From assembly GCA_025449115.1 (NCBI GenBank), contig JAHLKC010000109.1, positions 1 through 64,000 on the forward strand: a stretch of 64,000 nucleotides of DNA, written 5' to 3'. Below are positions 12,945 to 31,960 of the stretch, piece after piece. Within the stretch, counting starts at the first letter, position 1; each line of letters begins with the position of its first letter. A program made the translations under genes and the position numbers. The notes under the pieces were generated by a model. The model made no database searches, was not told where the DNA came from, and saw only the letters and a list, made by a program, of their open reading frames with translations. Source of the stretch: Chytridium lagenaria (taxonomy: Eukaryota; Chytridiomycota; Chytridiomycetes; Chytridiales; Chytridiaceae).

Positions 12945-13962
12945 TGTGAAGTTCTAGTGGTTTTTCACTTCACACCTTCATTTAAGTACTAAAGTGATTC
13001 TATTACTTTATGTAAATGGACGCACTTACGCGGTCCAAGTATAAATACACGAAATCCTCTATTCTTTTCCCTTATGTTATAGGGTTTTTACTGAAGGAGG
13101 TGACATAGACTTTACGCGCGTTCGAGGTATCGGGCCGTGTAAAGCTGTGTGTTCTGTGTTTGTTGTTTTTGGGTTGTATAAGTGTTTCCATTTCATGTAT
13201 TACGTTAATAGATGGATTGTTGACTTCATTTCTGCTCTTTGAGATTTGAGGCTCCTCTGGGGCTCTCTTGCCATGACCCCCTTGCCATCCACCATTAATA
13301 TATTCAGGAATGCCTGCCTAACCCTCTGCTGTCGCCGCCAGGCTATTCCTCTCGCAGTCAGCTTACTGGGCTGAACCCAGGGAACAAAGGCAGCTTTGGA
13401 GCTGGTTCAATCCCAGTATTTTCGCCTCCTTAGCTGAAGCCTAGTTCTGATCCCCTATCCTTGATGGCAGGATCACGGCATGACGGGCTAGCATCACTCC
13501 TTCCTATGTCCCCCAATGACGTTGGCAGTTGATGCAGTGAGCAGATGCTGCATGCCCTGCTTTGCAACGTAGGCTGGAAAGGAAGTGCACATACAACTGG
13601 TGAAAAGGTGATTGAAGCATGGCGGAGAGTGGCTCCCCACGGGCGTGTTCTAGGACGCCAGGTGTACAAGCTACAAGGTATGTTATATGTGTTATTGCCC
13701 CTTTTATTACTAGAAACCCTTGATTGTGAGATGAGAACCCCATCCCTTGATCAGTTCACGAGAACCAAGCCAAATTAACGTCTGCTGGCCGAGCATCGAG
13801 AGTACATGTCGACGCCGGAAACCAAGCAGGGACTTCCTACCTACAGAACGGCATGACCCATGTTCCGCTGTAGGCTCGGAACTCTAGAAGACATCCACCC
13901 CATCTCCCCATTCGAACATGAGGAATATGGAGGGCCAGGTGTAAATAACCGATGATGTCGCA
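12945..13962 (+). repeat. 5' LTR of Gyp-1
   Basis: 1018 bp, TGTGAAGTTCTAGTGG to GATGATGTCGCA, aligned with 27808-28838 over its whole length. A TATAAATA element at 13040-13047 is a good promoter candidate. It lies about 95 bp from the LTR start and is also present in the 3' LTR. Confidence 0.92.
13040..13047 (+). promoter_or_regulatory. TATA element in Gyp-1 LTR
   Basis: AAGTATAAATACAC, kept in both LTRs. The position fits a U3 promoter, but a transcription start cannot be seen. Confidence 0.5.
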
Positions 13963-15418
13963 GTGGGGGCCCAACCAAAATGGTTTTCTACTGGTTAGTG
14001 ATGCGTTTCTCCCCTCGCTCCTGGGTCTTTTCTCCTTCCTGTTAGAATTCCTTTTTATCCCCATTATGAGGCCTTCTTCCAGGCTCTCTCCCGTCGCTGT
14101 CTCTCCGCATTTGGAGTAGGCAAGCACACCATTGATTCCCCGCATTCCTGGCTACCTTCCATTAGCCGCTTATGCACGGAACTCCTAAAATGAGTCCTCA
14201 GTGGTCATCCCTGCTGAGGCCCTCAAAAGTTTATAAGTAAAAACGAATGCCGACTTCCGAGGCCTCGTCACCTTTATTCATATAGTAAGTTTACACGTTC
14301 AATATTGCATCCCGAAACCTCTGTGAAGGGCTTTCCGATGATGTATTGCATGCCTCGAGCCGCGTCGGGTATCACGCAATCACGCTTTGCGCTCGAGGCA
14401 TCCCCATGATGCCTTCACCATCATCCATGTCCCCGCAGGAGCCGCCTTGAAACGACTCCTTGTTTCAGGGTACTCCTTGTTTCAAAGATCAAATCTTAGT
14501 CTTTTTTGTAAGGACAATTAGTGATGATTCATTATGAAAAGGTACCTACTCCTTGCGGTCCCTCGTTTCGGCACTCTAGTGTTGCGGCGACTAGGAGTCC
14601 CTCAGAATGATCTGTGTGATTATTGGCTATAACTATAATCAGTAAACTTTAACAAATTACCTCTGAGCTCTCGTGGCTTAGGAGGAACATTCAAATGTTC
14701 CTCCTAAGCCTCCGGCGCTTCATCCATTATCCCACCGCTCCCATTGCAAAACACGCCAAATGGCGTGCCGACAATTTTAATTAGAATTTCTAATTAAAAA
14801 CCTTTATTCTCACTTTGCGGCTCCGTTTACTTAGTAAACCTACATTCGGTCACTAAGTAAAGTCGTTTTTTGAGGACTCGCGGTTCTAATGGAACTGCTT
14901 TTACCGCATTCCCATTATTTCCCGTCGAGAACGGCCTTTGCTAAGAATTTATACTTATCCTAATTAGAAATCTTTCTCTCTTTCCTTTTTTGGGAAGTTC
15001 TAATTAACTACATACGTGGTCCACGGTTCGATTCCCCTTTGGGCAATCCTTAATTGCCTCATTCATAAATGATTATTTACATATTCGAAATCTTTTCAAA
15101 TATCCAAGCCAAACCACCTAAAGTTTAGCGGCACGTCACGTATAAATGTCTTAACCAATTTTTACTTTTGGTCTAGACTTGGCCCTATAGAACATAAAAT
15201 AAAACCAATATTATTTTATTCTAATATAATATACATAACGCAACGGCACCCGCCGTGCAATCCACGATCCTTGTTCTGCGGCGCCTCTGCCTCGCTCCTC
15301 GTTGACAAACAAAGAAACCCCTCTCTTGTTTAAAGGGTAAACGAAAAATAAGAGGAAAGGAATAGGTGGACGACAGCCCCTTCTTGGGCAATGCTCACTT
15401 AAAGTATCTCCTGGGCTA
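13963..15418 (+). other. Gyp-1 leader region, no gag visible, rich in hairpins
   Basis: This 1.46-kb stretch lies between the 5' LTR and the first pol frame. A gag gene is expected here, but all frames are short and none shows a Gag or CCHC motif. TGGGGGCCCAACC just after the LTR (13964) is a possible primer-binding site that I could not match to a tRNA. Several inverted repeats stand out: TGCCTCGAGC with GCTCGAGGCA (14350-14400), a 16-bp perfect hairpin at 14675-14710 and a 12-bp palindrome at 14774-14798. The last part (15180-15418) has no feature I recognise. Confidence 0.6.
14675..14710. repeat. Perfect 16-bp hairpin in Gyp-1 leader
   Basis: GGCTTAGGAGGAACAT, loop TCAA, ATGTTCCTCCTAAGCC. 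The stem has no mismatch. A TTTTAATTAGAA / TTCTAATTAAAA palindrome follows about 60 bp downstream. Confidence 0.9.
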
Positions 15419-18400
15419 ATGACCCCACGCATTCGCAAAACTTTGACCTTTAATATAGTCGCCGCTTGCCCGCGTCCGATTATCTTAGGAACACCCACAA
15501 TAAATGCTTTCCGTATGGATTTACTTGCCAGCGAAAACATTGTGCGTTATTACTACTACGACAATAGTACTCAGAAACCCCCTTCGACGGCTTCTGTTAG
15601 GTCACTTTATTCCCCGAGTGACTGCTCTTTCACCGATGACGGAAGTTCGGAACCTGAAAGGCCACTTGACAAAACAATACCGCCAAAAGTTTCCCATTAC
15701 ACCACACCTATGAAGCTGGTCTCAAAAGGTTTTACTTACCGTAATTCTTCACCTTTTGTACGCGTCATTGCCGTCCAGGACACCACTTTAGAGTCGGATA
15801 TGACACATGCGGTAATGTGTAAGATAGACCGTCTTCCCGACGTCCCCAACTATACATATAATGTATGTCCTCGGAGTGATTTATCAGATATCGCCCCACA
15901 GTTTACTACCTTTGATCATGAAGATCTTTTCCCTGATGGCATGATTGCTCATGCCGTTAAAAGAAAGTGGAACAAAAAGGCGAAAGCCAAGTTTGAAGAA
16001 GAAATGGATGTCGTAATGAAACCTTTCCCTCTCTACGTCACGTACACCGGGTCCTTACCGACTACGATACATGCGGGAATGGAACTTGGACGTCTTTATG
16101 ACGAAGTTAAGAAATCCAATGATTTCGTTCTGAACATCTCAGACGAGATTCAAAAGGATGAATCCATGCTTATGTCTTTATGGCTAGAAGCACAAATAAA
16201 TAAGAAAATAAAGTCTCTCGACGACTTATATGTCCACTATTCTCTGTTGACGGAACCTGAAAAGGTTTCTCGACGAGAACGACGCCGTTATCAAAGAACG
16301 AGCAAAGGACATTCAACTAAGATACCAAGGTCTTTACCTACCGAAACTCTCAAAAAGCTTCGGAAGATGGAGAAGACCGACCCCGCAATTGATGATCCCC
16401 TTATGGATCTAAGCGACAATGAGGCAGATGACCAAACTGCTCTCGCCAACGAAAGCATTAATTTACCTCCCTCAGACCTCAACGCTTTGACGGATAACGA
16501 GGTCATCGACCTTCTAAAACCATCTAAGGAAGAAGAGGAAGTTCTTTCTCGCCTCCAACCTCACGATACTACGAATGAAGATCGTATGGACTATCTTAAA
16601 AATATGATCCCTCAGTCTTTTGAAGATATCTGGACCAAGTTTAACCTGGACCACCTTAAAAACAACCCTGAACGAATTGACGCCTTAGTGAAGTTCCTTC
16701 AACGAGGAAACAACGCTGATGTATTTCGAGAATATATCACAACTGGCGATAAATCGCCTGGGAAGCATACTGTTGAAATTAAACCCTATGCGCGAGCACC
16801 TAACATGCCTCCTTACCCTGTGGGTTTGGAACGTGCTAAGATCATTCGCGATCATATTAGCGAAATGTTAAAAACGGGAGTCATAAGAGAGTCACGATCT
16901 CCTTACGCTTCCCCTGTATGTCTCGCCAAAAAGAAGGACGGAACTGTAAGGTTTTGCACAGACTTCAGGCGTCTTAATGAAATAACTATAAAAGATAAAT
17001 ACCCTTTACCAAGGATTGACGAAACCTTTGACCGATTAGCTGGGTCAACCATATTCTCATCGCTTGACCTACTTTCTGGATTCTGGCAAATTCCTGCTGC
17101 TACAGAAGACCGACATAAAACCGCATTCGTCACTCCTGACGGACTTTATGAATACCTTGTAATGCCGTTTGGTTTAACTAACAGCCCACCCACCTTTCAA
17201 AGGTGCATGGACATGGTCCTTGCTGGACTAAAATGGATAAATTGCATGGTCTATATCGACGATATTATAATCTTCTCCAAAGACGACGAATCCCACTTTG
17301 AAAATCTACAAATGGTCTTTGATAGACTCTTGGAGTATAATCTAAAGTTGAAACCAAAAAAGTGTCAGTTCCCCTTTGAGGTTCTCCCATTCTTAGGACA
17401 CGTCGTCTCCAAAGACGGCATAAAGCCAGACCCCGATAAGCTGACCAAGCTGGACGACTGGCCAACCCCCACCTGCTGTAAAGATGTCCAACGTTTCTTG
17501 GGCTTCACTAATTACTTTAGACGTTTCGTCTACAATTTCACTGAAGTCGCGTTCCCACTTTACAACTTGTTGAAGAAACAAAATAGTTTTACTTCGACAG
17601 ATTCCTGTGAATCCTCCTTTAGGCATCTTATCAAAACATTAAAGTCCGAGGTTCAGCTGACGAATCCTCTCCCAGACGATAAGCTCGTTATTTCCTGTGA
17701 CGCCTCCAAGTATGGAATTGGCGCCGCTTTATTCATCAATAGAGATGGCATCTACCTTCCCGTTGCCTTTGCCTCGCGCACTTTGAATGAAGCCGAGCAA
17801 AATTACTCAAACACTGATAGAGAAGGTCTAGCCGTTGTATGGGCCGCAAACTTATTTGAACCCTACACATGGCATAAACCCTACCGTATAGAAACCGACC
17901 ACTCTGCTCTTATCCCTTTATTTTCCAAAGGAGATCTGAAGGGCCGATTTGCTCGATGGGCTTACGCGCTTCAAGAGCATGAAATTGAATTGGTTCATAT
18001 ACCAGGTAAAAGTCAGGCTGTTGCCGACGCCTTATCACGGGCTTTTAAGCCAGAAGAAATCATAAAATCCGACGAGTCCGTCGCATCCATAATATCTGAC
18101 TCTTCCCGCGCCCACATAGGTAAAAACGCGAAAGAGAAAAACAAAGCTTTACCACAAAAACATAAAGATGTAGCCAAACGCTACGACTTACAATATTCCC
18201 AAGAAGATGTTTTAATCATCACGGAAAGCGACCAAGTCGTTCCCTTACGATCTGGATCTAAGGACTTCATCTTTTTAAGCTACCTTATTCCTCAACGCGT
18301 CCAACGACTTTGGATAATGGAAATGAAGCCAAAGGCCGCATTGCACATTGTTGTGCAGATAGGTACTGTTCACCTCCCCGGCGAAATTACCAATAATGTA

Positions 18401-18541
18401 GGACTCGGCAATGCCGATTTCAACAAGGGACTTACCGAGTTTCAATATGCCTATCCTGTTCACGGCGTATATGAACTCACCAAACCTTTGAAGCCTATTG
18501 ACTTCAAACAAAGTGTAAATAAAGAGTGGTTTATTAAGTAA
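15419..18541 (+). CDS. pol: Gyp-1 pol: protease end, reverse transcriptase, RNase H and unknown C-terminal segment
   Basis: One open frame of 1040 residues. The N-terminus keeps only the end of a retroviral-type protease (RPIILGTPTINAFRMDLL), so the true start is upstream and broken; the ATG at 15419 is probably not the initiator. Residues about 100-450 are an unrecognised charged region. RT starts near residue 475 with VIRESRSPYASPV, then TDFRRLNEIT, SSLDLLSGFWQIP (catalytic Asp), PFGLTNSPPTFQ and VYIDDIIIFS (YIDD). RNase H shows ISCDASKYGIGAAL, NYSNTDREGLAVVWA, ETDHSAL and ADALSRAF. The last 160 residues, after RNase H, match nothing I know. The stop (TAA 18539-18541) lies where Cop-5 sequence begins, so the natural frame probably continued at about 23352. 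Confidence 0.93.
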   Translation: MTPRIRKTLTFNIVAACPRPIILGTPTINAFRMDLLASENIVRYYYYDNSTQKPPSTASVRSLYSPSDCSFTDDGSSEPERPLDKTIPPKVSHYTTPMKLVSKGFTYRNSSPFVRVIAVQDTTLESDMTHAVMCKIDRLPDVPNYTYNVCPRSDLSDIAPQFTTFDHEDLFPDGMIAHAVKRKWNKKAKAKFEEEMDVVMKPFPLYVTYTGSLPTTIHAGMELGRLYDEVKKSNDFVLNISDEIQKDESMLMSLWLEAQINKKIKSLDDLYVHYSLLTEPEKVSRRERRRYQRTSKGHSTKIPRSLPTETLKKLRKMEKTDPAIDDPLMDLSDNEADDQTALANESINLPPSDLNALTDNEVIDLLKPSKEEEEVLSRLQPHDTTNEDRMDYLKNMIPQSFEDIWTKFNLDHLKNNPERIDALVKFLQRGNNADVFREYITTGDKSPGKHTVEIKPYARAPNMPPYPVGLERAKIIRDHISEMLKTGVIRESRSPYASPVCLAKKKDGTVRFCTDFRRLNEITIKDKYPLPRIDETFDRLAGSTIFSSLDLLSGFWQIPAATEDRHKTAFVTPDGLYEYLVMPFGLTNSPPTFQRCMDMVLAGLKWINCMVYIDDIIIFSKDDESHFENLQMVFDRLLEYNLKLKPKKCQFPFEVLPFLGHVVSKDGIKPDPDKLTKLDDWPTPTCCKDVQRFLGFTNYFRRFVYNFTEVAFPLYNLLKKQNSFTSTDSCESSFRHLIKTLKSEVQLTNPLPDDKLVISCDASKYGIGAALFINRDGIYLPVAFASRTLNEAEQNYSNTDREGLAVVWAANLFEPYTWHKPYRIETDHSALIPLFSKGDLKGRFARWAYALQEHEIELVHIPGKSQAVADALSRAFKPEEIIKSDESVASIISDSSRAHIGKNAKEKNKALPQKHKDVAKRYDLQYSQEDVLIITESDQVVPLRSGSKDFIFLSYLIPQRVQRLWIMEMKPKAALHIVVQIGTVHLPGEITNNVGLGNADFNKGLTEFQYAYPVHGVYELTKPLKPIDFKQSVNKEWFIK

Positions 18542-18543
18542 GT

Positions 18544-18886
18544 TGAGTGAAAAGTTGGAGTGTGTCAACTAGAGGAAAGCGCTTGCAAGTGCAAAAGGAA
18601 GTGTGAGGGAAAGGAGGTGAGTGCTCCTTTTATATGCAGCGCTGTTCCCTTCAGAGTTGCTGCGGGCTGCTTCAAGGGAAGCGTACCGCCACTTTGGCGT
18701 TTTGAGACGACGGGTGAAGGGGGTGAGTTGAAAGGACAAAGTCAATCAATGAGTGTAACCTGTTTATAACCCAATAAACAGTATACTTGTGTAACTTGAT
18801 TCTTTATTTGTTTTGTCTCCAAGGTTGGTATCCCAGGAGTCCGTCGGCCTTTGGAGGCGGCAACGGAACCTCACTGGTTTCCAACA
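18544..18886 (-). repeat. Probable 3' LTR of Cop-5
   Basis: It ends with CCAACA at 18886, directly followed by the purine tract complement CTTCCCCCCAGG. The left limit is uncertain: TGAGTGAAAAG at 18544 or TGTGTCAACT at 18561. There is no second LTR to compare with. Confidence 0.6.
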
Positions 18887-20760
18887 CTTCCCCCCAGGTT
18901 TGGAAGCTCGGTAGCTTGCAAAGATGCAAGTTGACGCATGCCGAGGGATTCTCTGTGTTGAGAAAAATGGTGGAGCGAGTGCTTTGGTGAAGATGTCGGC
19001 GATGTTGTCGTGGTGCCGACTGCCTTCACTTGGAAGAAGTTTTGTTCAACTAATTCGCGTATATAGTGTACGGAACGTCGAATATGCTTGGTTTTCTCGT
19101 GATGTTCAGGATTGTACGCGAGGTGAATGGCGGACTTGTTGTCGTTGTAAAGGTTAACAGGATTTAGCGTAACGCCAAGTTCTTCAAGAAGTTTGAAGAT
19201 CCAAACAATCTCTCGTGCACTTTCAGAAACGGTTTGATATTCTGCTTCTGCGGTTGAGAGAGAGATGGTTCCTAAACTTCCAACTTCGCCATGAAACCAG
19301 GTTTCCTCCGAAGAAGAACGCGTACCCGACTTGAGACTTGCTGTCGTCTGGATCAGACTGAAATGATGCGTCGCAAAAACCGACGACGGCATTGTGTCCT
19401 TCATTTGTATAGAGGATGCCTAAGTCACGAGTGCTCCAGACGTAACGGAAGATGCGTTCAACCGTTTTCCAGTGTGTTTGGGAAGGGTTTCCCATGTGTC
19501 TTGCCACAACAGAACGGAGTAGCTTATGTCGGGTCGAGTTTGGGTTGCTAAGTACATCAACGCACCCACAACCTGAGCATATGGACCGCTGGAGGCTTCT
19601 TCGCTCGGTTTCTTGCGGAAGATCTTGGTTGTTGAGTTCATGGGAGTGGACTCGGGGGTAAGGTGTGTGTCCGAGAAGAAGCGTCGTTTAAGTTCGTTGA
19701 CGTACTTATGCTGGTGTAGCAGAAGTCCTTCTGGCACCTTGGTGAATTCGACACCTAGACCAAAGCTGGCAGATCCAATGACCTTGACCTCGAAGCGGGC
19801 TTGTAAGTAGTCCAATGCCGTCTTAACGGCTTCGTCCGTTCCAAAGAAGAAAAGGTCGTCGACATATATGGCGATGAGAACACTAGGTGTGTCCAGAATG
19901 AAGAGCAAGGGTCAGCGCAACTTGGAAGGAAACCAATTTCCTTCAAGTAATCTGTAAGGCATATGTTCCAACGCCGTCCAGCTTGCTTGGTGCCATACAG
20001 TGACTTGACGAGTAACCATACTCTCTTGGTGCCGTCGCCGAAGCCTTCAGGCTGTTCCATGTAGACGGCGTGGTCCATGTCGCCGTAAAGATACGCGGTA
20101 ACCACGTCGGCCATGTGAACTTCGAGGCTGCGAGACACGGCAAAACTGAAGAGCCAACGAAGTGTTTCAGCACGAACTACGGAGCGAAGGTCTCAAGGAA
20201 GTCAATCCCGTACTTCTGCGTGAATCCTTTGGCGACCAGTCTTGCCTTGTACCTTATGGTTCCGTCGGGATTCTTCTTGAGGCGGAAAACCCACTTGGCG
20301 CCTATGACATGCTGACCTTGAGGTCTGTCTACGAGGGCGTAAACACTTCGAAGTTTAAGAGCTTCGATTTCAGCAAGGCATGCGTTTCTCCATTCTTGAC
20401 CATCGGGGCGAGAGAATGCTTCTTGTTCGGTTAATGGATCAGGTTGGTGTCTTGGTTCATAAGGTTCAGTAACCTTGGTGTTGTAGAGATGAGTTGGCTT
20501 CTTGACCTTGCGGCCAGAGCGAGTCCCATCCGTTGTCGGCATAACCTCGTCAATGCTGCGGTCACTATAGTTGCCGAGGTTGGATTCTTCGCTCTCGCTT
20601 GATGCTATTGAAGCGTCATCCAATAGGTTGGTGATGGGAATGGTTGCAGAAGTCCCGTCGTCCTCGTTTGTGGACTCGTCTGGTTTGGACCATAGAGATG
20701 TGTATCTCTCGTCTTCAGGGTTGGGTCCTGAATTTATGGGTTCCAAGTCAGAGTCCGTGT
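18880..20760 (-). pseudogene. pol: RT and RNase H of Cop-5
   Basis: The linker and RT start (20177-20746) show RSGRKVKKPTHLYNTK, NACLAEIEALKLRSVYALVD, GAKWVFRLKKNPDGTI and YKARLVAKGFTQKYGIDF. RT continues with VVTAYLYGDMDHAVYMEQPEG, VKSLYGTKQAGRRWN and LIAIYVDDLFFFGTDEAV, with the YVDD catalytic pair. RNase H follows with VVGFCDASFQSDPDD, ISLSTAEAEYQTVSESARE and LYNDNKSAIHLA. At least four frames are used (20177-20746, 19755-20138, 19420-19908, 18871-19404), so it is inactive although all catalytic motifs are still readable. Confidence 0.9.
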
Positions 20761-20879
20761 CAACGTGGCTTGATTGTTGCCTTCCCCCCGGACGAGGACG
20801 TTTGGAAACACGGGGTCGTGAGGAGGTGGACGATTCTCACGGGGACGCTGATTATGAAGTTGAAGTTAATAATTGAAAT

Positions 20880-21045
20880 ATAATGAAACAATAAACAAAA
20901 TTAAGCTTTTTGTGGGAAAAAGAGTGTATTAATGGATGATGCGGGCATAAGAGCCAAACAACTTTGCGATGTTTTCCACTCATTAACTACAACAATAAAG
21001 GTATGTGCTCTGTGGCTACACATGTCAATCCACAATATTGATATT
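20880..21045. other. AT-rich non-coding gap in Cop-5 linker
   Basis: No copia coding frame can be followed here in either direction. The flanks are the integrase C-terminus (right) and the linker (left). It could be a small insertion or decayed linker, and I see no repeat ends. Confidence 0.4.
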
Positions 21046-21047
21046 CT

Positions 21048-21673
21048 TCATAAGGTTATCAAGCAATACCTTAGCGGTAAGGGTGGTTGAAGCGAATTCT
21101 TGCTCATCCTCGCTAGTGGAGTCGATCTCGACGTTATCTTGTTCATCTGCACATGAAAAGACAAGGTGAGAAGATGAGAAGAAGCATTGACACGGTTTGT
21201 AGTTACCATTAATGAACTGCAAAGTTCCCTCATGTGAGAGTGCGAGAAGGCGCGGTGCAATCTTTGAGCCGTAGATTGCGGGAAAACGGCGATCGAAGAA
21301 ATCGCAGTTTTTGAGGTGAGCCGCATGCTCATGGCCTGTGTGGATGTCGAGGACGATTGCTTTGGAGAGCTTTCGAGGCCGACAAAGATGTTCTTGGCCA
21401 TGCGAGGTGCCATGCGGTGAGTGCGGTTGATTTTAGTGACATGAATGCCTACTAAACAACCAAAAGGATGAAGATCTTGAAGAGTGGGTTGCTTGCCGTA
21501 GAGTGCTTCATGTGGAGAGAGAGCGCCTTTCTTGGTGGATGGGATGAGGTTATGGAGATATGCGGCATGGTTGATTGCATAACCCCAGCACCAAGAGGAA
21601 GGCGGCATTGAAGCATGAGAGCGAGAGCTTTCGTGAAGATGGTGCGGATATGGCGTTCAGCAACGCCGTTCAT
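21048..21673 (-). pseudogene. pol: Integrase Glu region and C-terminal domain of Cop-5
   Basis: NGVAERHIRTIFTKALALML (about 21610-21670) carries the third catalytic residue of the DDE integrase. YAINHAAYLHNLIPST follows and then PHEALYGKQPTLQDLHPFGC, the usual copia block before the integrase C-terminal domain. After GCLVGIHVTKINRTHRMAPR comes KNIFVGLESS. The frame shifts between NGVAER (21452-21673) and the rest (21048-21608). The N-terminal part of integrase is in the neighbouring open frame 21657-22661. Confidence 0.85.
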
Positions 21674-22661
21674 CCAAGATGAGTCGGCTCAGTCCAAGTA
21701 GGTTTGATGCCACTCTTTTCGCACCAGCAACGAAGTCGTTATTCTTCAGTTCCTTGGCTTGATCGGCACGGAGCTCAGTGACGATAGGATCTTCAGGAGT
21801 GTGATGAAATTCTCGTCGAAGTGTTTCGATGAGAGTGATTACCCTGTCAGCAAGCTGGCTCTTGGTAGGAAGTAGACTGACCCAAACAAACGAAGTTGAT
21901 GAGTCAACGATGACTGCAACCGTGGTGCTGCCCTTGTGGGGTGCTTGACTCGGTCCGAATCCGAGGTCCACGTGTATACGCTGAAGACGTCGAAGTTGAG
22001 CTCTTGTAGAGTCATTCTTGGAGGTCTTGCGTTGTCGTGTTGAGGAACAAACGGTGCAAGGGTCGAGTGCGTCTAAGTACCGTACCAGTGCCTTTGATCC
22101 GATGCCGTAAGCTTGTTTCTTGCGAAGCATGCGCTTCATTACTTGCCGTGATGGGTGACCGAGTGCGGTGTGAAGTTTCTCAAGTTCTCGTTCCATGACG
22201 GTTCGGTTGGCAAGATCGAATTGCCCATCAGCATGGAACGAGGAGAAGTCGTTGGAGTCAACGATGGTGGTGATTGCTCCAATGTTGGTGGGAGCTCGAG
22301 GTCCTTGAGGGGAAAGCGAGAGAATCATTAAGCCTGAAGGAGAATCAATGATTTCTGCTACTTCACCGTCACCTGGTCTTGTGAGGAAAGACCCTCCTGG
22401 CCCATCTTGCATGTAGAGGCCAGCATCTCGAAGAGTGTTCCTTGAGACTAAACGGACGCGTATGCTGGGAACATACAAAGCAGGGAATTGGATGGGATGG
22501 CCAAGGTTTGTGAAGCCTTTGACGATCCCAAGCATTTCACTTTGTTCACCAGCAAATGCACCGTCAACGCCAGCGCGATACGGTGTTGGGTCTTGGAGGT
22601 CCTCGAGGAACGGGGTGAGAGCTTGGTCGGTGAGTCCTGTGTCAAATGCCCATTGACTCAC
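21657..22661 (-). pseudogene. pol: Protease, GAG-pre and integrase N-terminal part of Cop-5
   Basis: 334 codons in one frame. WAFDTGLTD near the start is the protease active site (Asp-Thr-Gly; copia usually has DSG). FPALYVPSIRVRLVSRNTL is the hydrophobic PR block. LHTALGHPSRQVMKRML with CTVCSSTRQRK is the integrase H2C2 zinc unit. RIHVDLGFGPS carries the first catalytic Asp, and ELRADQAKELKNNDFV the second. The frame then diverges, and the Glu region is read at 21610-21670 after a shift. Confidence 0.88.
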
Positions 22662-22812
22662 GCCGTCGTCAAGGTCCGGGTGGATACGAGAACTTGCAAC
22701 TTGAAGGGCGTCAATGTTGACAGCGGCAAAGAAAGCAAAGCGGGGTCTCTTGGGAGGGATGCTTGAAGTATCAATCTTTCGTTTGCCGTGTCTTGTCGTT
22801 CGACGACTTCAA

Positions 22813-23350
22813 TTACTGGGAGGTCTCGTTCCTTGACTTGGACGTGGTTAACTTGGGTCTTGCGCACAGACGACGAGTTGTGAGTTCCGAGAGTTGCTCC
22901 TTGAGTTCGTTCACCGTTGTGAGTAAGGCTTGCATGGTTCCCTTGTAGCCTGTCTGCGTGTGCGAGACGGTCTTGGTACCAGCAACCTTAGGACAGTCGA
23001 TGGAGATGTGCCCTTTGGTGTTGCAGGCAACGCAAGTTAGGTCTTTGCAGACCTCAAGGCGTCGAGACTTGGTCATTCTCTTGAGTTGGCCGAATGTAAA
23101 GCCGGTTGAGTGCACGGAGTTTGGTCCTGCTTTGGCGATCAGCTTTGCATCTGGATGCAACTGGTGGAGTCTGTCCTTGCCTTGACCTTTGCCTTGTTTT
23201 CCTTGCGCTTGAGTTTTTCCTTGCGGAGGACCAGAGTTGGTTACCGACAACACGAGGGTCTTTGAGTCGGAGTTAGTGCGATTGTGAATGCTCACAAACG
23301 ACTCCATGCTTTTCAGCATGTTCTTGGTTGTTGTCTCCTTGGCGAGGTTT
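22813..23350 (-). pseudogene. gag: C-terminal Gag of Cop-5
   Basis: A basic Gln/Gly/Lys-rich stretch (KTQAQGKQGKGQGKDRLHQL) precedes a zinc knuckle CVACNTKGHISIDC, then a hydrophobic tail. Only the C-terminal part of Gag is present; the N-terminal core seen in copia Gag is missing at the right end. The frame to protease is broken near 22800. Confidence 0.8.
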
Positions 23351-23351
23351 G

Positions 23352-24072
23352 TTAACGAATCCCAATGTCGTCATATCCCAATGACGATATTTGAAAAACA
23401 CCCATTAAAACGGATGAATAAACTTATAACCCACCCGCCCACCCTTGACGATTATCTTCTCTCAAAAACGGGAGTTTGATGATAGTCATCAATGTCTTGT
23501 GAATGGAGTAATCAATCACTCACCTCCAAAGCAACTTTTTACTCCAGAGGATGTCGTTGATTACTCCCTCAAAAGATAGATCATTTTAGAATCTGACTTT
23601 ATCTTACGAATGAGCTCTTCGCGACTCCAGGATATCCTGACAGGTCAGCGAGAGTTTGAATACACAAGAAGGAGTTCCCTGCATATCTAGCTTCTGGATT
23701 TGCCAGATTCCTGACGTGGGAAAGAACGATAATGGCGTAAGGAAGAAAACCCTGCCAGGGCGTATCTCACACGTTATTACCGTTGCAAAACCACTACCAC
23801 CAGGAAGCGCCGACTATCCACAACCGGATAAGTATGGTCTCGGCTACTACCTTGACACGCATTATGCCTACCGCATTATTGAAGTACATGAAATCCCCAA
23901 CGTTCTGATGGAACGAAGGATTGATAAGAATGAACCTCCCTCGTTACAAGAGCTCTATAACGTACCTACAACGCGGGGCATGCCCGCCGTCCCTCCAAAA
24001 ATGATGCTTGACTATGCGCCATCTCTATTAACAAGAGTGTTCCCTCCTGAGAAAGGTCTTCCCCTTTCTTAA
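23352..24072 (+). pseudogene. Gyp-1 pol segment between RNase H and endonuclease, function unknown
   Basis: Gyp-1 coding-like sequence resumes after Cop-5. From about 23352 there is a short frame (HIPMTIFEKHPLKRM, THPPTLDDYLLSKTG). After a damaged stretch (23470-23655) comes a frame of 138 residues (23656-24072) with KTLPGRISHVITVAKPLPPG, GLGYYLDTHYAYRIIEV and PPKMMLDYAPSLLTRVFPPE. I do not recognise a domain. The last codons overlap in another frame with the start of the endonuclease, suggesting one original polyprotein now shifted by a base. Confidence 0.6.
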
Positions 24073-25186
24073 GCACTTCACTCAAATTGGCGAGTTGGAA
24101 CGTCAACAGCTTACATGCATTATGCAAAAAGTATTACAAACACAGAAAAGAAGATGAAGATTATAACAAAGCTGAGTTCCTCGCGAAATACCTAGATCAA
24201 ATGGGTTACTCCATTGTATGTCTTCAAGAGACAAAGATGGGGCGAAGGAGCAAGAAAGCTCTGGGATCAACTTCATAACCTTTCAAAATGGAACGTTTAT
24301 TCAGACGATATACGAGACGGTTCTAATGGTGTTGTAACCTTAGTCCGTAAACACATACCAGTAATCTCGGTGCTCAAGGGCACTTCATTCACACCAAGCA
24401 ACGACTTCGTTGAAGAAGGTCGCTGCCTTACCCTTTGCCTTCCTGGGCTCAACTTAGTTAATATCTACGCACCCAATGGCACACGCCATGATCATAGACA
24501 AAAGTATAAGATGAAGTTTCTAAGCAGAGTTTATGACTTTGTGAAAGAACTCCTTCAAAAAGATAAAACCATAGTTCTAGGCGATTTTAACATCGCGCAT
24601 ACCTCACTTGACGTCCGTCATCCCCGAGGTTCCATGGATATTCTGGTTTCCGTTATGATGAACGATCATGGCTTGACGCCTTTCTTAGACTCGGATTCTT
24701 TGACGGATTCCGAAAATGCCATCCTAACTTACCAGGATACACGTGGCATGACCCCCAACACTTTTACCAAGCTGTTTGGAGGATAGACTATGCCTTCATT
24801 GACTATAGAATACCCTGCAATTGGACTGTTGAGCACCGCTTTGTAGCCGGCCTCACCGACCATAGCGCCGTCGAACTTACTTTAAGCAATGACGACGCTG
24901 CACAATACGAAGCTGACCAGTATGTCTCATTACCCGCACTTGAAGTTGACGATGGGCCTCCTACGAGGCTTCTACGCAAAAAGAAGAATAAAAATGCGCG
25001 TACTCAAACGCCAAAAAAGATACCCTCCGGTGCTGCTAGCAACGAGGATGAACCTGACGAATTCTTTGCACTTGGGAAGATGTCTGATGAAATTCTCAAA
25101 CTACAACTACTTGACCAAGACTTCAGCAAAGTTATCCAATTCCTAAAAATGGAACTTTACCTGAGGAAGAAAATGCGAAAGCTATA
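24066..25186 (+). pseudogene. ExoIII/APE-family endonuclease domain in Gyp-1 pol
   Basis: Members of this family (EEP superfamily) are metal-dependent AP endonucleases/exonucleases. Readable in order: ASWNVNSLHA (conserved Asn, 24090-24115), IVCLQETK (metal-binding Glu, 24228), NIYAPNG (about 24460), VLGDFNIAH (Asp and Asn, about 24575-24600), DERSWLDAFLRLGFFDGFRK (24655-24715), GYTWHD (24733), WRIDYAFID (24777-24805) and LTDHSAV (Asp-His pair, about 24855-24875). All catalytic positions of the family are kept. Two single-base shifts (near 24236 and 24630) break the frame. The SWLDAFL and GYTWHD blocks are like ExoIII/APE1 more than like the APE domain of LINEs. A basic linker (RLLRKKKNKNA) leads into integrase, with a further shift near 25148. 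It lies inside the LTRs between RNase H and INT. Confidence 0.88.
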
Positions 25187-27388
25187 GTGCTGAAAAATGC
25201 TCAGCATAGCATCATACGCGGTGAGCTTCTCTACCGCGTATTACACGTAAAAGAATATTTATTAAAGAGGTCGCCTGTGCGATTAGCTTTATGTGTCCCG
25301 CGCGGGCTCAGGCAGGTTGCCTTTGAACAAATACATGATGATATCATGACCGGTGGTCACCTTGGTGCACAGAAGTTGCTCACCACCACCCTCGAAAGGT
25401 ACTGGTGGCCTACTATCCATCGCGATCTTATCAATTATGTGCGTGGATGTTCTACGTGCCAAAAATGTAAAGACTCTCTTAGGAGAGTTGGAGCTGTAAA
25501 ACCCGTTCCCTTAGGTGATAAGCCTTGGGAACGCGTCGCTATAGATATTGTGGGACCACTTAAAGCAAGTAAAACCGGAAACAAGTATATTGTTGTACTG
25601 ACTGATTACTTCACCCGATGGGCCGATGCTTTTGCCGTCCCTGATATAACTACTGACACCGTCTCCAAGATAATAGTGGAGCAATGCTTCTGCCGTTTTG
25701 GAATACCTCTGATCCTGCACTCGGATCAGGGGCAACCCTTTATTAGTGAACTTATGAAGAAGGTTAGCATAGTGCTTGGACTTCGAAGATCCTTCTCCTC
25801 ACCTTACTGGCCTCAGGCCAATGGTTTGGTTGAAAGGACTAATAAAACACTATGCCAAATGATCAGGGCATACATCAACCAAGATACCCACGATGATTGG
25901 GATGAAATCTTGCCGTACGTCATGTTCGCGTACCGAACAACAGTCAACCCCACTACTCATGAGACTCCTTTCTTGTTGATGTTCGGGCGAGACCCATTAA
26001 CTCCCGCAGACCTTCGTTTTGGTATATCTACTGACGATGTCTTTGCGGAAGAATATCCCGACCCGTCTACATGGGCTGGACAAGAACCACAACTCTTAGT
26101 AAATACCTCTGTTACTGTCGTTGAGGAAGAATCTGAGTTCCCTCGCGTGGCTGTTATGTACGCCACTCAGAAACACGTTCTTACACAGCGTTTATCCAAA
26201 GCAGCACATGGCTTAAAGACACGCGCCGACAGAGACGATTGTCTTCTGGCTGGGGATCTACTCATCAAATATAACTTGGACGCCTTATACCTGGTACATA
26301 CCATGGCGTTTCCAAGACAACACTCCAAATTCTTCTGGAGAACTCAAAATGAACCAGATAGGGTCCAGATTTACACCGCGTTCTCTAAGGTCAGTCTTAC
26401 TCCCTCTGATGGGAAGAAACAGTTATCCTATGTGAGTGTATATCACCTTGGCGGCCTAGTAAAGGATCCTGCTGAAGGATTACACTTAGATAAAGAAATG
26501 AATCTCTTGTATAAAGGGAAGTGTATAGTTAGGCCTGAGGCCTTTGACGATCATCACGGCGCCCCTTTGAACGCTGAGGTCCCTTCAATCATGCTGATAT
26601 CTTCAGCCATAAATACCGATCCACAAGTCGTGGGTAGTATTGCCAACGAGACTGCAGAACTACCATTCCGAGATCATGAGATCTTTGCGAATACCAGAAC
26701 AAAGCTGAAGAGAATTGTAAAGAAAGTATTCAAAGATCACATACCTGACTACAAGGATTATGTTGAAAAACTCACTTCACGCTTAGCTTTTGCTAAGTCT
26801 GTGCTAATGCGTGAAGAACGAAAACGTATACAACACGCTAATGACCGCGCTAAAAACGACCGGCACCGGTTTGAACTTGGTGACCTTATATGGTTATCCG
26901 TCCCCCTACGTAGTGACTCCACGCGAGGAGATGCCATGCAGAAATTCCAGTTCAGATGGGCTGGCCCTATGAGAGTCATTGGACACTCAGAAGATCATAA
27001 TCGATTTGATCTAGTTGAAACCTTACCTGATGGTCGTTTGCTATCACGAACCGCCAATGCTGCCAGGATGCGCCCTTACCACCCAGCGCCACCTTTAGAC
27101 AGTGCTAATGACGCCTCTGCTAGAGTCATTACTGATGACTTTGAAAAAGAAATTGAGGCATGGAAACAACTCAGAATGCTAAAACGACGCCCTCGAGTTC
27201 GAGTTGCTCTTGGCGTTAATAGAGAACTTTTTAGAAGATTCGACGCTGATGTTTTAGAAGCTGACATCGACGATCCTGAGTATTACATAGAGAAAATTGA
27301 TGAGCATACTTTTAATGCTGATGATAAAACATATCAATACCATAAAATGGTTAGGCCATGGTACTGCCCACAACCTTTGGTTGGATGA
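25187..27388 (+). CDS. pol: Gyp-1 integrase with a large extra segment
   Basis: An open frame of 733 residues. The H2C2 zinc unit is HDDIMTGGHLGAQKLL ... CSTCQKC (residues about 45-90). The DDE core reads WERVAIDIVGPL (Asp), LILHSDQGQPFIS (Asp) and SPYWPQANGLVERTNKTL (Glu). After MFGRDPLTPADLRFG, where gypsy integrases soon reach the GPY/F-type module, there is an additional segment of roughly 215 residues (26060-26700) with no recognised domain. Then come DYVEKLTSRLAFAKSVL, FELGDLIWLS and FQFRWAGPMRVI, the usual C-terminal module. The frame continues into a chromodomain (DPEYYIEKIDEHTF) and ends at 27388 because of a shift. The apparent ATG is internal; the upstream frame (24800-25150) joins it with one base shift. 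Confidence 0.92.
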   Translation: MLKNAQHSIIRGELLYRVLHVKEYLLKRSPVRLALCVPRGLRQVAFEQIHDDIMTGGHLGAQKLLTTTLERYWWPTIHRDLINYVRGCSTCQKCKDSLRRVGAVKPVPLGDKPWERVAIDIVGPLKASKTGNKYIVVLTDYFTRWADAFAVPDITTDTVSKIIVEQCFCRFGIPLILHSDQGQPFISELMKKVSIVLGLRRSFSSPYWPQANGLVERTNKTLCQMIRAYINQDTHDDWDEILPYVMFAYRTTVNPTTHETPFLLMFGRDPLTPADLRFGISTDDVFAEEYPDPSTWAGQEPQLLVNTSVTVVEEESEFPRVAVMYATQKHVLTQRLSKAAHGLKTRADRDDCLLAGDLLIKYNLDALYLVHTMAFPRQHSKFFWRTQNEPDRVQIYTAFSKVSLTPSDGKKQLSYVSVYHLGGLVKDPAEGLHLDKEMNLLYKGKCIVRPEAFDDHHGAPLNAEVPSIMLISSAINTDPQVVGSIANETAELPFRDHEIFANTRTKLKRIVKKVFKDHIPDYKDYVEKLTSRLAFAKSVLMREERKRIQHANDRAKNDRHRFELGDLIWLSVPLRSDSTRGDAMQKFQFRWAGPMRVIGHSEDHNRFDLVETLPDGRLLSRTANAARMRPYHPAPPLDSANDASARVITDDFEKEIEAWKQLRMLKRRPRVRVALGVNRELFRRFDADVLEADIDDPEYYIEKIDEHTFNADDKTYQYHKMVRPWYCPQPLVG

Positions 27389-27807: not shown

Positions 27808-28838
27808 TGTGAAGTTCTAGTGGTTTTTCACTTCACACCTTCACTTTAAGTACTAAAGTGATTCCTATTACTTTACGTAAATGGACGCGACTTACGCGGT
27901 CCCAAGTATAAATACACGAAATCCTCTATTCTTTTCCCTTATGTTATAGGGTTTTTACTGAAGGAGGTGACATAGACTTTACGCGCGTTCGAGGTATCGG
28001 CGCCGTGTAAAGCTGTGTGTTCTGTGTTTTGTTTGTTTTTGGGTTGTATAAGTGTTTCCATTTCATGTATTACGTTAATAGATGGATTGTTGACCTTCAT
28101 TTCTGCTCTTTGAGATTTGAGGCTCCTCTGGGGCTCTCTTGCCCATGATCCCCCTTGCCATCCACCATTAATATATTCAGGGAATGCCTGCCTAACCCTC
28201 TGCTGTCGCCGCCAGGCTATTCCTCTCGCAGTCAGCTTACTGGGCTGAACCCAGGGAACAAAGGCAGCTTTGGAGCTGGTTCAATCCCAGTATTTTCGCC
28301 TCCTTAGCTGAAGCCTAGTTCTGATCCCCTATCCTTGATGGCAGGATCACGGCATGACGGGCTTTAGCCATCACTCCTTCCTATGTCCCCCGATGACGTT
28401 GGCATTGATGCAGTGAGCAGATGCTGCATGCCGCTTTGCAACGTAGGCTGGAAAGGAAGTGCACATACAACTGGTGAAAAGGTGATTGAAGCATGGCGGA
28501 GAGTGGCTCCCCCACGGCGTGTTCTAGGACGCCAGGTGTACAAGCTACAAGGTATGTTATATGTGTTATTGCCCCTTTTATTACTAGAAACCCTTGATTG
28601 TGAGATGAGAACCCCATCCCTTGATCAGTTCACGAGAACCAAGCCAAATTAACGTCTGCTGGCCGAGCATCGAGAGTACATCGTCGACGCCGGAAACCAA
28701 GCAGGGACTTCCTACCTACAGAACGGCATGACCCATGTTCCGCTGTAGGCTCGGAACTCTAGAAGACATCCACCCCATCTCCCCATTCGAACATGAGGAC
28801 ATATGGAGGGCCAGGTGTAAATAACTGATGATGTCGCA
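27808..28838 (+). repeat. 3' LTR of Gyp-1
   Basis: 1031 bp, TGTGAAGTTCTAGTGG to GATGATGTCGCA, aligned with 12945-13962. Followed by the AGAT target duplication. Confidence 0.92.
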
Positions 28839-29245: not shown

Positions 29246-29356
29246 GAATTTGTCACTTTAGGTATTACATGGATCAAAAAAAAATTTATTTTTAGGTTTA
29301 ATTAATAAAATCTTGCAGCTAATAAAATAGCCTGGTGCTTCGACATACGCTCTTAA
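29246..29356. other. Pogo-1 right end, non-coding, with subterminal repeat
   Basis: AT-rich. It contains TTGCAGCTAATAAAATAGCC and TGGTGCTTCGACATACG (29312-29350), the partner of the left subterminal repeat in the same orientation. Confidence 0.65.
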
Positions 29357-29385
29357 ATTTGGTGCTTCCGCAAACGAAATGACGG
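29357..29385 (+). repeat. Right terminal inverted repeat of Pogo-1
   Basis: ATTTGGTGCTTCCGCAAACG then AAATGACGG, followed by the TA duplication. Inverted partner of 11078-11106. Confidence 0.93.
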
Positions 29386-29387
29386 TA

Positions 29388-30140
29388 TCTCTGCTGGAAC
29401 ACCACAATCTTCCTTTTACACGATCATAGCGACATTGCCACCCCAGGACGTATCGAAAACTTGGAGCTCTTGTACCTCGGTAACGTCTCATGAATCGTTT
29501 TTCTGATCGATCTAATTCCTCCTTGCTCGTCGACGCTTCTATGATATCATCAACGTAACTCCCTTCAAGGTGAGATCCTTGCCGTTTCGCTTGTAATAAA
29601 GACACGGATCCGCCGCTGAGCGAGTAAACTTCTCCTCGTCGACTTGGAACGTGTTCAAGTCGGTGTTGAAACACATTGGTGCTTGAACGAGTCCGTAGAG
29701 ACTCTTCATGCACAGGCACACCCAGTCTTCCTTCCCTTCAACGACGAATCCTTCAGGCTGTTCAATATATATCTCATGATCTTCCAACTTCCCATTCAAG
29801 AACGCGGTCTTGACGTCGTATTGTCGAATCTCCATGTTTTCTTGACAAGCGACCGCAAGCATCACTCTCAACGTTGCTTGCTTGATGACAGGTGCGAATT
29901 TCTCGTCATAGTCGATTCCTTGTTTTTGCGAGTAACCTTTAGCAACAAATCTCGCTTTCGTTTATCGAGATTTCCCAACTCATCTCGCTTTGTTTTGTAC
30001 ACCCATCCTGATTTAATAATCTTTCTCCCTTTAGGTCGGGGAACCAACCTCCATGTTCCCATCTCAACCAAACTTTTCATTTCCTCCTCCATCGCTTTCC
30101 TCCACTCGTCCTTCTCCTTCCTACCCATCGCTTCCTGGTA
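29388..30140 (-). pseudogene. pol: N-terminal and central RT of Cop-4
   Basis: The RT start KSLVEMGTWRLVPRPKGRK and SGWVYKTKRDELGNL (30000-30100) is followed, after a shift near 29945, by RQYDVKTAFLNGKLEDHE, CLCMKSLYGLVQAPMCF and DPCLYYKRNGKDLTLKG. The YVDD block right after is read in a second frame (YVDDIIEAS, about 29545-29575) because a base is missing compared with Cop-6. The protein is cut at 29388 by Pogo-1 and continues at 11077. Confidence 0.9.
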
Positions 30141-30163
30141 GGTCTTTGGTTCGTCGTCATCTT

Positions 30164-30694
30164 CTAACGATGCCGTGTTTGCTGATGGTCTAACCGTCCA
30201 AAACTCTCCAGGCTTCTTCTTGTTCCGTGATGACCTTCGAAGGGATGTTTCGTATGGCTCATCCAGGTCTTCACGGAAGTTTGGAACTCTTCTTCCACCA
30301 GATCGACGAACCGTAGGTGAGTGAGGTTCCTCTCTTTCTTCATCTTCATCGTCGTCACGATCGGGTGTATGATAACTAACATTATCATCTTCTCATCTTC
30401 AGAGTCTTCGTCGTTTACCGCCGTATCAAGTTCACTTCCACCAGAGCTTGACGAGTCTGTAGAGTAATCCGGTAAGTCTAGATCGTTTTTCCATTCTTGA
30501 ACCTCCCCTTCAAACTTTGATTCTCCCTTCTCTGCTTCCGCCGCCATTACTCCCTCGTTAAAAATCACTGACTTGCTTCTAACCAACTTATTCGTTTGCA
30601 AATCCCAAAGGCGATAGCCCAGCGGCTCATACCCAACGAGAGCACACCGTCGTGCGTTGAAATCTCCCTTCTTTCGTTGCTGCTTGGGTATCAA
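30164..30694 (-). pseudogene. pol: INT C-terminal domain and linker of Cop-4
   Basis: The same arrangement as 7323-7937: ARRCALVGYEPLGYRLWDL, KLVRSKSVIFNEG, TDSSSSGGSELDTAVNDEDS, then a shift near 30395 that changes the acid-rich part into a basic reading. The RT-side end is FREDLDEPYETSLRRS in another frame. Confidence 0.82.
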
Positions 30695-31602
30695 TACGAG
30701 TGCCAGGCAACCCCAACCACGAGTCTTGACAAGTCAGGTTTCACTCCAGCGAATCTCTCAAGCGGCGTTGCATCTTGTTCGTTCGTTCGGGTTGGTGATC
30801 GGTTAATGAGGTAAGCTGCAGCCATCACGGCTTCACCCCAAAAACGCGTTTCGAGTTTTGAAGAACTTAACATGCTTTTAGACCTCTCGTTCAAGGTCCT
30901 GTTCATCCGTTCGGCAACACCGTTCTGTTGCGGTGTGTACGGCATGGTGAACGTAAGTCGAATCCCATGCTCTAAGCACCAATCCTTCATTAGTTTGTTG
31001 TTGAATTCGCCGCCGTTGTCTGCCACGATTTCAATGAGCTTCCTTTTGATTTTCTTCTCGGCTTCTTCTTTAAAACTTTTGATGAACTTGAATGACTCAT
31101 TCTTCTTCTTGCACAGGTAAACGGTAACGTAGTTTGTCGCGCTGTCGACGATGGTGAGGAAGTAACGTGCGCCGCCATTTGACGCGGTCTTCATAGGTCC
31201 AACGATGTCAACGTGGATTTTCTCGAGAGGCTCCTTGGCTTTCAACTCGTCGGGTTTGTCAGGAAATGATGTCCTTGTCATTTTCCCATCAACACAACCC
31301 TCACACAGGTAAGTGTCATCTTCATTCGTCATCTTGACTCCCTTCGCTACCTTCATTAACTTCTTCACTCCCTTCTTTCCTAGATGACCCATCCGCAAGT
31401 GCCACTGGTGCGGTGTCAGAGGCTTCTCGGCCTTTGCTGAGGCGGTGCTTGGCTTGAATTCGATGACTTGATCAAGGTAAATGAGATTCTCTTTGCTGCT
31501 GTAGGTAAACGTTGCAAGTGCTTGTGCTGACGGTTCTTTCTTTGGTTTAAGGTCGTATCCGTCGTCCTTCGGGAATATGTCAAGATCCTTCTTTCTCGCC
31601 AT
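30691..31602 (-). CDS. pol: Integrase of Cop-4, nearly intact
   Basis: 303 residues open: GYDLKPKKEPSAQALATF (end of PR/GAG-pre), HQWHLRMGHLGKKGVKKL and CEGCVDGK (H2C2), EKIHVDIVGPM (catalytic Asp), IVADNGGEFNNKLMKDW (catalytic Asp) and TPQQNGVAERMNRTL (catalytic Glu), then RFWGEAVMAAAYLINRSP. It is the best preserved copia integrase in the window. The frame ends in a shift near 30720 where Cop-3 continues VWGCLAL. The upstream ATG is internal to the polyprotein. Confidence 0.92.
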   Translation of the reverse strand: MARKKDLDIFPKDDGYDLKPKKEPSAQALATFTYSSKENLIYLDQVIEFKPSTASAKAEKPLTPHQWHLRMGHLGKKGVKKLMKVAKGVKMTNEDDTYLCEGCVDGKMTRTSFPDKPDELKAKEPLEKIHVDIVGPMKTASNGGARYFLTIVDSATNYVTVYLCKKKNESFKFIKSFKEEAEKKIKRKLIEIVADNGGEFNNKLMKDWCLEHGIRLTFTMPYTPQQNGVAERMNRTLNERSKSMLSSSKLETRFWGEAVMAAAYLINRSPTRTNEQDATPLERFAGVKPDLSRLVVGVAWHSY

Positions 31603-31613
31603 CCCAAGCGAGA

Positions 31614-31960
31614 TCAGGTTCCGTCCGATGTTTGGTACGTATAAACGTTCTTGAGTATTAACGTTCCTGTTCTTTCGCCGTTTCTAATCTTCACTTCACA
31701 GTCACCAACTCCACGGGATTCAAGATTGCTGTTGTTGTCGGCAGTGCTGATGTTGCACTGATGGAGCGGTAGTTCGACAGGATGTTGCGCTGGAACGTCA
31801 TGTGGTGAGTGGCTCCAGAGTCTAACATCCATCTGGTGTCTCTAGTCTGCGGACCGCCTTCCGAGCTCATGTTGACGGTAGGTACTGCTGCAACGAATAC
31901 CACAGGATTTCCTCCGTTGTTGTTGTTCTGATTGTTGTTTTGGTTTGCCAGGTTTGCATT
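31614..31960 (-). pseudogene. pol: Protease of Cop-4
   Basis: TRDTRWMLDSGATHHMTF (about 31805-31855) with DSG, upstream VVFVAAVPTVNMSSEGG. A base lost at about 31762 shifts the frame after NYRSI. The C-terminal part GDCEVKIRNGERTGTLILKN is in the second frame, and TTTGGTACGTATAAACG near 31635 lacks a base against KNVLYVPN. Confidence 0.85.

What the first reader, a model, noticed from the sequence alone, without database searches (positions are those of the whole stretch)
24066..24960. ExoIII/APE-type endonuclease domain between RNase H and integrase of a Ty3/gypsy chromovirus
Seen: inside the LTR pair of Gyp-1, downstream of RNase H and upstream of the H2C2/DDE integrase, the blocks WNVNS, QETK, NIYAPN, GDFNIAH, DERSWLDAFLRLG, GYTWHD, WRIDY and TDHSAV occur in the order of AP endonucleases. 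Known: APE domains belong to non-LTR retrotransposons and DNA repair; LTR elements use a DDE integrase. I know of no described LTR family with both. Inference: the domain may nick DNA for an alternative integration route, process cDNA ends, or be a captured repair gene. It is joined to the polyprotein rather than being a LINE insertion: no LINE RT follows, and integrase continues after a short basic linker.
Basis: partly seen in the sequence, partly recalled or inferred. Interest (0 to 1): 0.92.

Follow-up and report, generated by a model that had tools for sequence, protein, structure and literature searches.

The report
AP endonuclease inside gypsy retrotransposons
A family of virus-like jumping genes in a chytrid fungus carries, between its RNase H and its integrase, a complete DNA-repair-type endonuclease that such elements are not known to have, and it has kept that enzyme under selection in many copies.

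The parts
12945..13962 (+). 5' LTR (TG...CA); flank ends in AGAT
   Evidence: pair alignment with the 3' LTR: 1014 matches, 4 mismatches, 19 gaps over the aligned stretch
27808..28838 (+). 3' LTR (TG...CA); flank begins with AGAT
   Evidence: other full-length copies of this LTR in the genome
15341..18541 (+). open frame with RT (about 16928-17401), RNase H (about 17672-17977) and the start of the unassigned region
   Evidence: Pfam RVT_1 2e-36, RT_RNaseH 2.3e-28
18209..18507 (+). first part of an unassigned region between RNase H and the endonuclease (clade A)
   Evidence: aligns with the corresponding part of C198 and C324; no Pfam family in its C198 counterpart
18508..23333 (-). nested insertion with Ty1/copia-type frames that splits the copy
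   Evidence: sister copies C104 and C44 lack it; frames on the minus strand (type judged by eye, no family scan)
23334..24065 (+). second part of the unassigned region
   Evidence: continuous with sister copies from 23334 on; 23641-24069 aligns with five relatives; no PDB or Pfam match
24066..24884 (+). ExoIII/APE1-type endonuclease (EEP) domain, broken by two frame changes in this copy
   Evidence: motif positions; PF03372; TIGR00633; alignment with natural open frames
24885..25114 (+). basic linker between endonuclease and integrase
   Evidence: sequence of the frame 24612-25187
25115..27388 (+). integrase frame: H2C2 zinc domain (about 25295-25474), DDE core (about 25520-25810)
   Evidence: Pfam Integrase_H2C2 2.2e-18, rve 4.1e-13

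Best explanation
It is the pol region of a Ty3/gypsy LTR retrotransposon of a chytrid fungus whose polyprotein permanently carries an ExoIII/APE1-family endonuclease between RNase H and a DDE integrase. SHOWN: the architecture, its conservation across copies and subfamilies, a second lineage and a metagenomic relative, intact catalytic residues, signs of purifying selection, and integrase-type insertion (TG...CA ends, 4-bp duplications). INFERRED: the element captured a cellular repair nuclease, probably more than once. After release by the protease or as part of the integrase precursor, the nuclease acts inside the particle on the element's own cDNA: it nicks at abasic sites or misincorporated uracil and removes blocked or ragged 3' ends, so that full-length LTR ends with clean 3'-OH groups reach the integrase. 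This works like, but is not, the lentiviral dUTPase that occupies the same slot. Anatomy about 0.97; cDNA repair or end-processing role about 0.45.
Against: No activity, expression or particle data. DNA-contact residues equivalent to APE1 N226 and N229 are not kept in clade A or P0061, and the loop before D283 is shorter in clade A, so substrate preference may differ from APE1. The AU test does not reject joining clade-A EEP with LINE endonucleases (p=0.14). The dN/dS argument rests on one informative pair, and over long times EEP changes faster than RT and INT. The fungus also has an APE1-like gene (C71), so the element would not strictly need its own. The first EEP-restricted protein search did not return P0061; only the EEP+integrase search did.
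Confidence: 0.55

Rival explanations
1. Alternative or assisted integration: the endonuclease nicks chromosomal target DNA (LINE-like) to prime or open the site.
For: LINE APE domains do this (passage in PMC5911963); the domain sits next to the integrase, separated only by a linker.
Against: TG...CA ends with 4-bp duplications at the window element and 6 of 8 other LTRs are the mark of integrase; the domain is of the repair type, not the LINE type, by profile and similarity.
Confidence: 0.12
2. RNA/DNA processing in reverse transcription: ExoIII-family RNase H or 3' exonuclease activity removes the tRNA primer, polypurine-tract primer or untemplated 3' bases.
For: ExoIII enzymes have RNase H and 3'-5' exonuclease activity (recalled); the slot is shortly downstream of RNase H in clade B and P0061 (by eye).
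Against: The element has its own RNase H, matched by Pfam with its motifs; no direct evidence.
Confidence: 0.25
3. Passive passenger: a captured gene fragment with no function.
For: Many copies, the window's included, are broken.
Against: Catalytic residues kept in 7 of 7 complete domains from three divergent groups; low dN/dS in the informative pair; presence in 25 of 25 groups.
Confidence: 0.04
4. Counter-defence: the nuclease clears uracil or abasic lesions placed in the cDNA by host deaminases, or blocks host repair factors.
For: Analogy with dUTPase and uracil restriction of retroviruses (PMC2427051, start of abstract in the listing).
Against: No deaminase-type mutation pattern was tested, and fungal cDNA deamination is not known to me.
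Confidence: 0.1

Closest known systems
Ty3/gypsy (Metaviridae) LTR retrotransposons, chromovirus-like
   Same: LTRs, RT-RNase H-integrase order, H2C2 and D-D35-E integrase, 4-bp duplications, chromodomain-like tail in C198
   Different: extra ExoIII/APE1 domain between RNase H and integrase and, in clade A, an additional unassigned region
ExoIII/APE1 (xth) AP endonucleases, incl. Mth0212 uridine endonuclease
   Same: family profile over cut-off, catalytic residues, predicted fold
   Different: part of a retrotransposon polyprotein; N226/N229 contacts not kept in clade A; shorter loop before D283
LINE (non-LTR) APE endonuclease
   Same: same EEP superfamily, in a retroelement
   Different: best score to 8 LINE domains of this genome 5.7 bits; lies after RNase H, not before RT; PF14529 under cut-off
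Lentiviral dUTPase
   Same: nucleotide/DNA-quality enzyme in the pol slot between RNase H and integrase (PMC4531489 passages)
   Different: unrelated enzyme; prevents uracil rather than cutting at lesions
Other gypsy elements with captured domains (archaeal-type RNase H; 2-ODD RNA demethylase in orchids)
   Same: capture and fixation of a cellular enzyme (PMC5348765 passages; PMC9289625 passages)
   Different: different enzyme

Membership tests
Ty3/gypsy LTR retrotransposon | direct LTRs with TG...CA and short target-site duplication | tested here: met
   12945-13962 / 27808-28838, AGAT
Ty3/gypsy LTR retrotransposon | RT-RNase H-integrase order with H2C2 and DDE | tested here: met
Ty3/gypsy LTR retrotransposon | gag and protease | tested here: inconclusive
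   no Pfam match in the first 900 residues of the C198 frame other than RT/RH; protease-like motif seen only by eye; gag of the window copy not found in its reading frames
Chromovirus | C-terminal chromodomain | tested here: inconclusive
   PF00385 24.0 bits, cut-off 25.1, in C198; none in the window frame; no tree with named chromoviruses
ExoIII/APE1 (xth) family | family profile over curated cut-off | tested here: met
   TIGR00633 131-160 bits, cut-off 99.05, in 6 of 6; the window's broken pieces 65.7 and 30.7 bits, under cut-off
ExoIII/APE1 (xth) family | catalytic residues | tested here: met
   7 of 7 complete domains (numbering recalled)
ExoIII/APE1 (xth) family | fold | tested here: met
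ExoIII/APE1 (xth) family | AP endonuclease activity | not testable with these tools
   needs purified protein
LINE APE endonuclease | PF14529 over cut-off (27.4) | tested here: not met
   12.2-21.7 bits in 6 of 6 element pieces; of two LINE pieces C40 30.8, C80 no match
LINE APE endonuclease | groups with LINE endonucleases in a tree | tested here: inconclusive
   LINE rows separate at 99/96, but AU does not reject A+LINE (p=0.14) or B+LINE (p=0.31)
Lentiviral dUTPase | dUTPase domain in the slot | tested here: not met
   no dUTPase family in the pieces of that slot scanned from C198, C95, C324 and C76 (of C324 only the endonuclease piece)

The most novel reading that the evidence does not exclude
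A hybrid retrotransposon class that carries two DNA-cutting systems, a DDE integrase and a repair-type AP/uridine endonuclease, and uses the second as an integrase-independent route, priming or resolving insertions at nicked or damaged chromosomal sites. Captured at least twice by unrelated gypsy lineages, it would bridge the LTR and LINE modes of insertion.
Probability: 0.08. Interest if true: 0.96.

Novelty: new variant of a known kind. Interest (0 to 1): 0.84.

Why it matters
LTR elements are defined by integrase and most LINEs by an endonuclease; here an LTR lineage carries both, apparently kept by selection, in at least two RT lineages and apparently in a second organism. It makes a question testable that lentiviral dUTPase raised: how far retroelement cDNA quality limits transposition. 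Several natural domains with intact active sites can be assayed one by one.

Tried and rejected
LINE insertion: rejected (integrase, not LINE RT, follows; repair-type family; in frame in relatives). One-off insertion or assembly chimera: rejected (25 of 25 groups; independent protein P0061). Loss of the domain in other copies: looked for. Of the 6 clade-A groups with RT only, the window is one (its EEP is separated by the copia-type insertion); C273 ends at the contig end; C115:1-4300 keeps part of the unassigned region but no EEP or INT was found; C346 lies at a contig end; C156 has EEP about 4.1 kb downstream; C296 was not examined. Of the 11 with INT only, C112 and C155:26900 show no RH or EEP upstream; C3:323979 keeps a degenerate integrase N-terminus and linker-like sequence but neither EEP nor RH in the 2 kb upstream, so a relative that lost the domain is not excluded there; C113 and C152 are at contig ends (coordinates); C131 has EEP about 7 kb upstream; C195, C142, two in C213 and C116 were not examined. 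The 64 groups with EEP only mix LINEs, host genes, fragments and some clade-B copies and were not sorted.

Unassigned region: I suspected ASCH/PUA-like domains from a pattern seen by eye. Pfam at E<=10, the PDB profile search and the AlphaFold model of P0062 (mean pLDDT 35.5) gave nothing, so no claim is made. A viral-contig scan with P0061 gave no relative. The Foldseek 'pdb' search was not run; the integrase part of the model was not compared.

One or two captures: the RT tree rejects A+B as one clade (AU p=0.00018); the EEP tree does not (p=0.40). Each EEP scores higher to cellular ExoIII (best 98-123 bits) than to the other clade's EEP (41-62) (A_C155 not used as query). The ExoIII set was recruited by similarity to a clade-A domain, which biases the A figures. 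Two captures are favoured, not proved.

Literature: ten searches ran, open-access PMC only: eight aimed at an endonuclease in LTR elements, one at the host name, one at dUTPase. Lists were capped (for example 25 of 373); beyond titles and abstract starts, only passages of ten papers were seen. None showed an APE domain in an LTR element. None of the 12 papers listed held the host name.

Full report
OBSERVATION. The frame-1 piece alone reaches PF03372 with E=3.2e-8; the frame-3 piece 24612-25187 has no Pfam match at E<=0.1. NCBIfam's exonuclease III model TIGR00633 matches two pieces of the window (65.7 and 30.7 bits). The copy is bounded by LTRs 12945-13962 and 27808-28838 with TG...CA ends and a 4-bp duplication AGAT. 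RT and RNase H lie in frame 15341-18541, H2C2 and DDE integrase in frame 25115-27388. An insertion with copia-type frames (18508-23333, minus strand) interrupts the copy; sister copies C104 and C44 lack it.

HOST. The window is part of a 41.9-Mb genome of 356 contigs with 8 chitin synthase (PF01644) matches on 4 contigs and none in 14 prokaryote controls, so a fungus. A protein of 96% identity over 16% of the query, named in nr 'BC829DRAFT_438990 [Chytridium lagenaria]', lies on a contig of 611,370 bases, exactly the length of contig C3 here. The host is therefore very probably the chytrid Chytridium lagenaria (taxonomy). This is inference from the match and the contig length.

THE DOMAIN IS RESIDENT. 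Several copies have it in one natural open frame: C198 (2,538 codons read in the locus, 2,573 by the genome search), C95 (1,604), C324 (1,308), C76 (1,145). In pieces, C198 gives RVT_1 (3e-40), RNase H (1.2e-27), Exo_endo_phos (9.6e-14), Integrase_H2C2 (3e-15), rve (9.5e-13) and a near-threshold chromodomain. YIDD, the endonuclease motifs and D-D35-E are intact in that one frame. I chained matches of RT, EEP and INT queries lying within 4 kb on one strand. Clade A (by my thresholds: RT at least 60% or INT at least 44% identical to the window) has 65 groups: 25 RT+EEP+INT, 20 EEP+INT, 3 RT+EEP, 6 RT only, 11 INT only, and none with RT and INT but no EEP. In all 25 the EEP coordinates lie between those of RT and INT. 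The window is not one of the 25, as the insertion splits its chain. Of the other 18 gypsy groups, 10 have RT and INT matches, and 9 of these have no EEP; there the gap from RT match to INT match is about 255 bases in the two I measured (C222, C23), against about 2.3 kb in C198. The hit lists are lower bounds, and not all fragments were examined (see Tried and rejected).

A SECOND LINEAGE. The tenth of those groups (C115), with C94, C63, C11, C137, C95:105.8 kb and C158, forms clade B, whose RT is only 33% identical to the window's where measured (C115, C94, C63; C137 known only from the hit tables). C94 and C63 were counted as RT+EEP because the integrase query missed them, but their frames show an integrase by eye. 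At C11 the RNase H end, EEP (1e-13) and H2C2 (4.9e-17) share a 500-codon stretch of open frame. In the clade-B copies read, EEP follows the RNase H end within some tens of residues, without the unassigned region. The RT tree puts B with a metagenomic element that has no EEP model (P0072, 100/100) and rejects A+B as one clade (AU p=0.00018).

ANOTHER ORGANISM. P0061 (ENA, 883 aa, 9 member sequences, a 6,250-base contig, no organism named) has Exo_endo_phos, Integrase_H2C2 and rve, 42% identical with full coverage of the 576-residue region searched. It was the only one of 12 hits with that set; ten of the other eleven were gypsy-type by their Pfam sets, without an EEP model, the last the C. lagenaria gene model (P0062). 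P0061 begins after an RNase H-like end and has about 95 residues before the endonuclease (by eye). The earlier search restricted to EEP, at E<=1e-10, returned one long protein only, an RT/group-II-intron type, and not P0061. How far the collection covers eukaryotes is unknown to me, so the spread is open.

SELECTION. By my own Nei-Gojobori-type script, dN/dS in the pair C76/C155 is 0.10 for EEP (278 codons) and 0.155 for INT (232 codons). The C95/C50 pair is too close to tell (0.277 on few changes). Between subfamilies synonymous change is saturated (pS of EEP 0.80-0.90) while pN of EEP is 0.17-0.42, higher than INT (0.23-0.30) and RT (0.12-0.24). So EEP is constrained, less tightly than the core enzymes over long times.

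HOW IT INSERTS. Nine further LTRs were read at both ends. One (C91) is the 5' LTR of a longer copy. Of the other eight, six have exact 4-bp duplications (C105, C53, C36, C22, C32, C218; the last two have nearly the same flanks and count as one site), two do not (C23, C89). All nine end in CA and eight begin with TG. This is integrase-type insertion and argues against a LINE-like route as the main one. It was tested for the window's LTR family only, not for the other subfamilies or clade B.

MECHANISM. Established knowledge (recalled): ExoIII-family enzymes cut at abasic sites, trim blocked 3' ends and degrade 3' strands and RNA in hybrids. With integration already explained by integrase, the economical role is on the element's cDNA. 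The lentiviral dUTPase, in the same slot between RNase H and integrase (PMC4531489, passages), is the working parallel. Two separate RT lineages having the same class of enzyme in the same slot suggests that the position is meaningful, for instance for release together with, or fusion to, integrase. None of this is shown biochemically.

LITERATURE. Eight searches of open-access full text aimed at it found no APE domain in an LTR element, as far as the capped lists and the passages read show. Passages describe captured RNase H and chromodomains (PMC5348765), an RNA demethylase (PMC9289625), DNMTs in dinoflagellate retrotransposons with an EEP or a tyrosine recombinase (PMC5890265), and complex nested fungal LTR elements (PMC3248453). 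The chytrid TE study PMC9926174 mentions apurinic endonuclease only for LINEs in the passages shown.

VERDICT. The novelty claim is limited to the sources searched. The function is inferred.

Noticed in passing
window:12945-13962: In 16 of 19 gaps between the two LTRs the 5' LTR is the one missing bases, mostly single ones; this looks like sequencing or assembly indels and may also bear on the frame changes in this copy.
   Followed up: partly
window:18508-23333 and 29258-31683: Minus-strand frames of copia type by eye: one set nested in the gypsy copy, another downstream of it.
   Followed up: partly
G000:C71:40051-40915 (L101 in part): Intron-split APE1-like gene, probably the host's own; the best single matches of human APE1 in the whole genome are nevertheless the retrotransposon domains.
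   Followed up: partly
genome G000: No match to endonuclease IV (TIGR00587) at E<=0.001 in a six-frame search; introns could hide it.
   Followed up: no
P0001: 933-aa ENA protein with RT, Exo_endo_phos and group-II-intron models (by recalled meaning of the accessions), a different retroelement-endonuclease combination.
   Followed up: no
L039:6040-7002, L041:2765-3754, window 18209-18507 and 23334-24065: Unassigned region between RNase H and the endonuclease in clade A, possibly two related domains.
   Followed up: partly
G000:C155:26900-27694: Integrase about 53% identical to the window's, without RT, RH or EEP found upstream; stray fragment or solitary integrase gene.
   Followed up: partly
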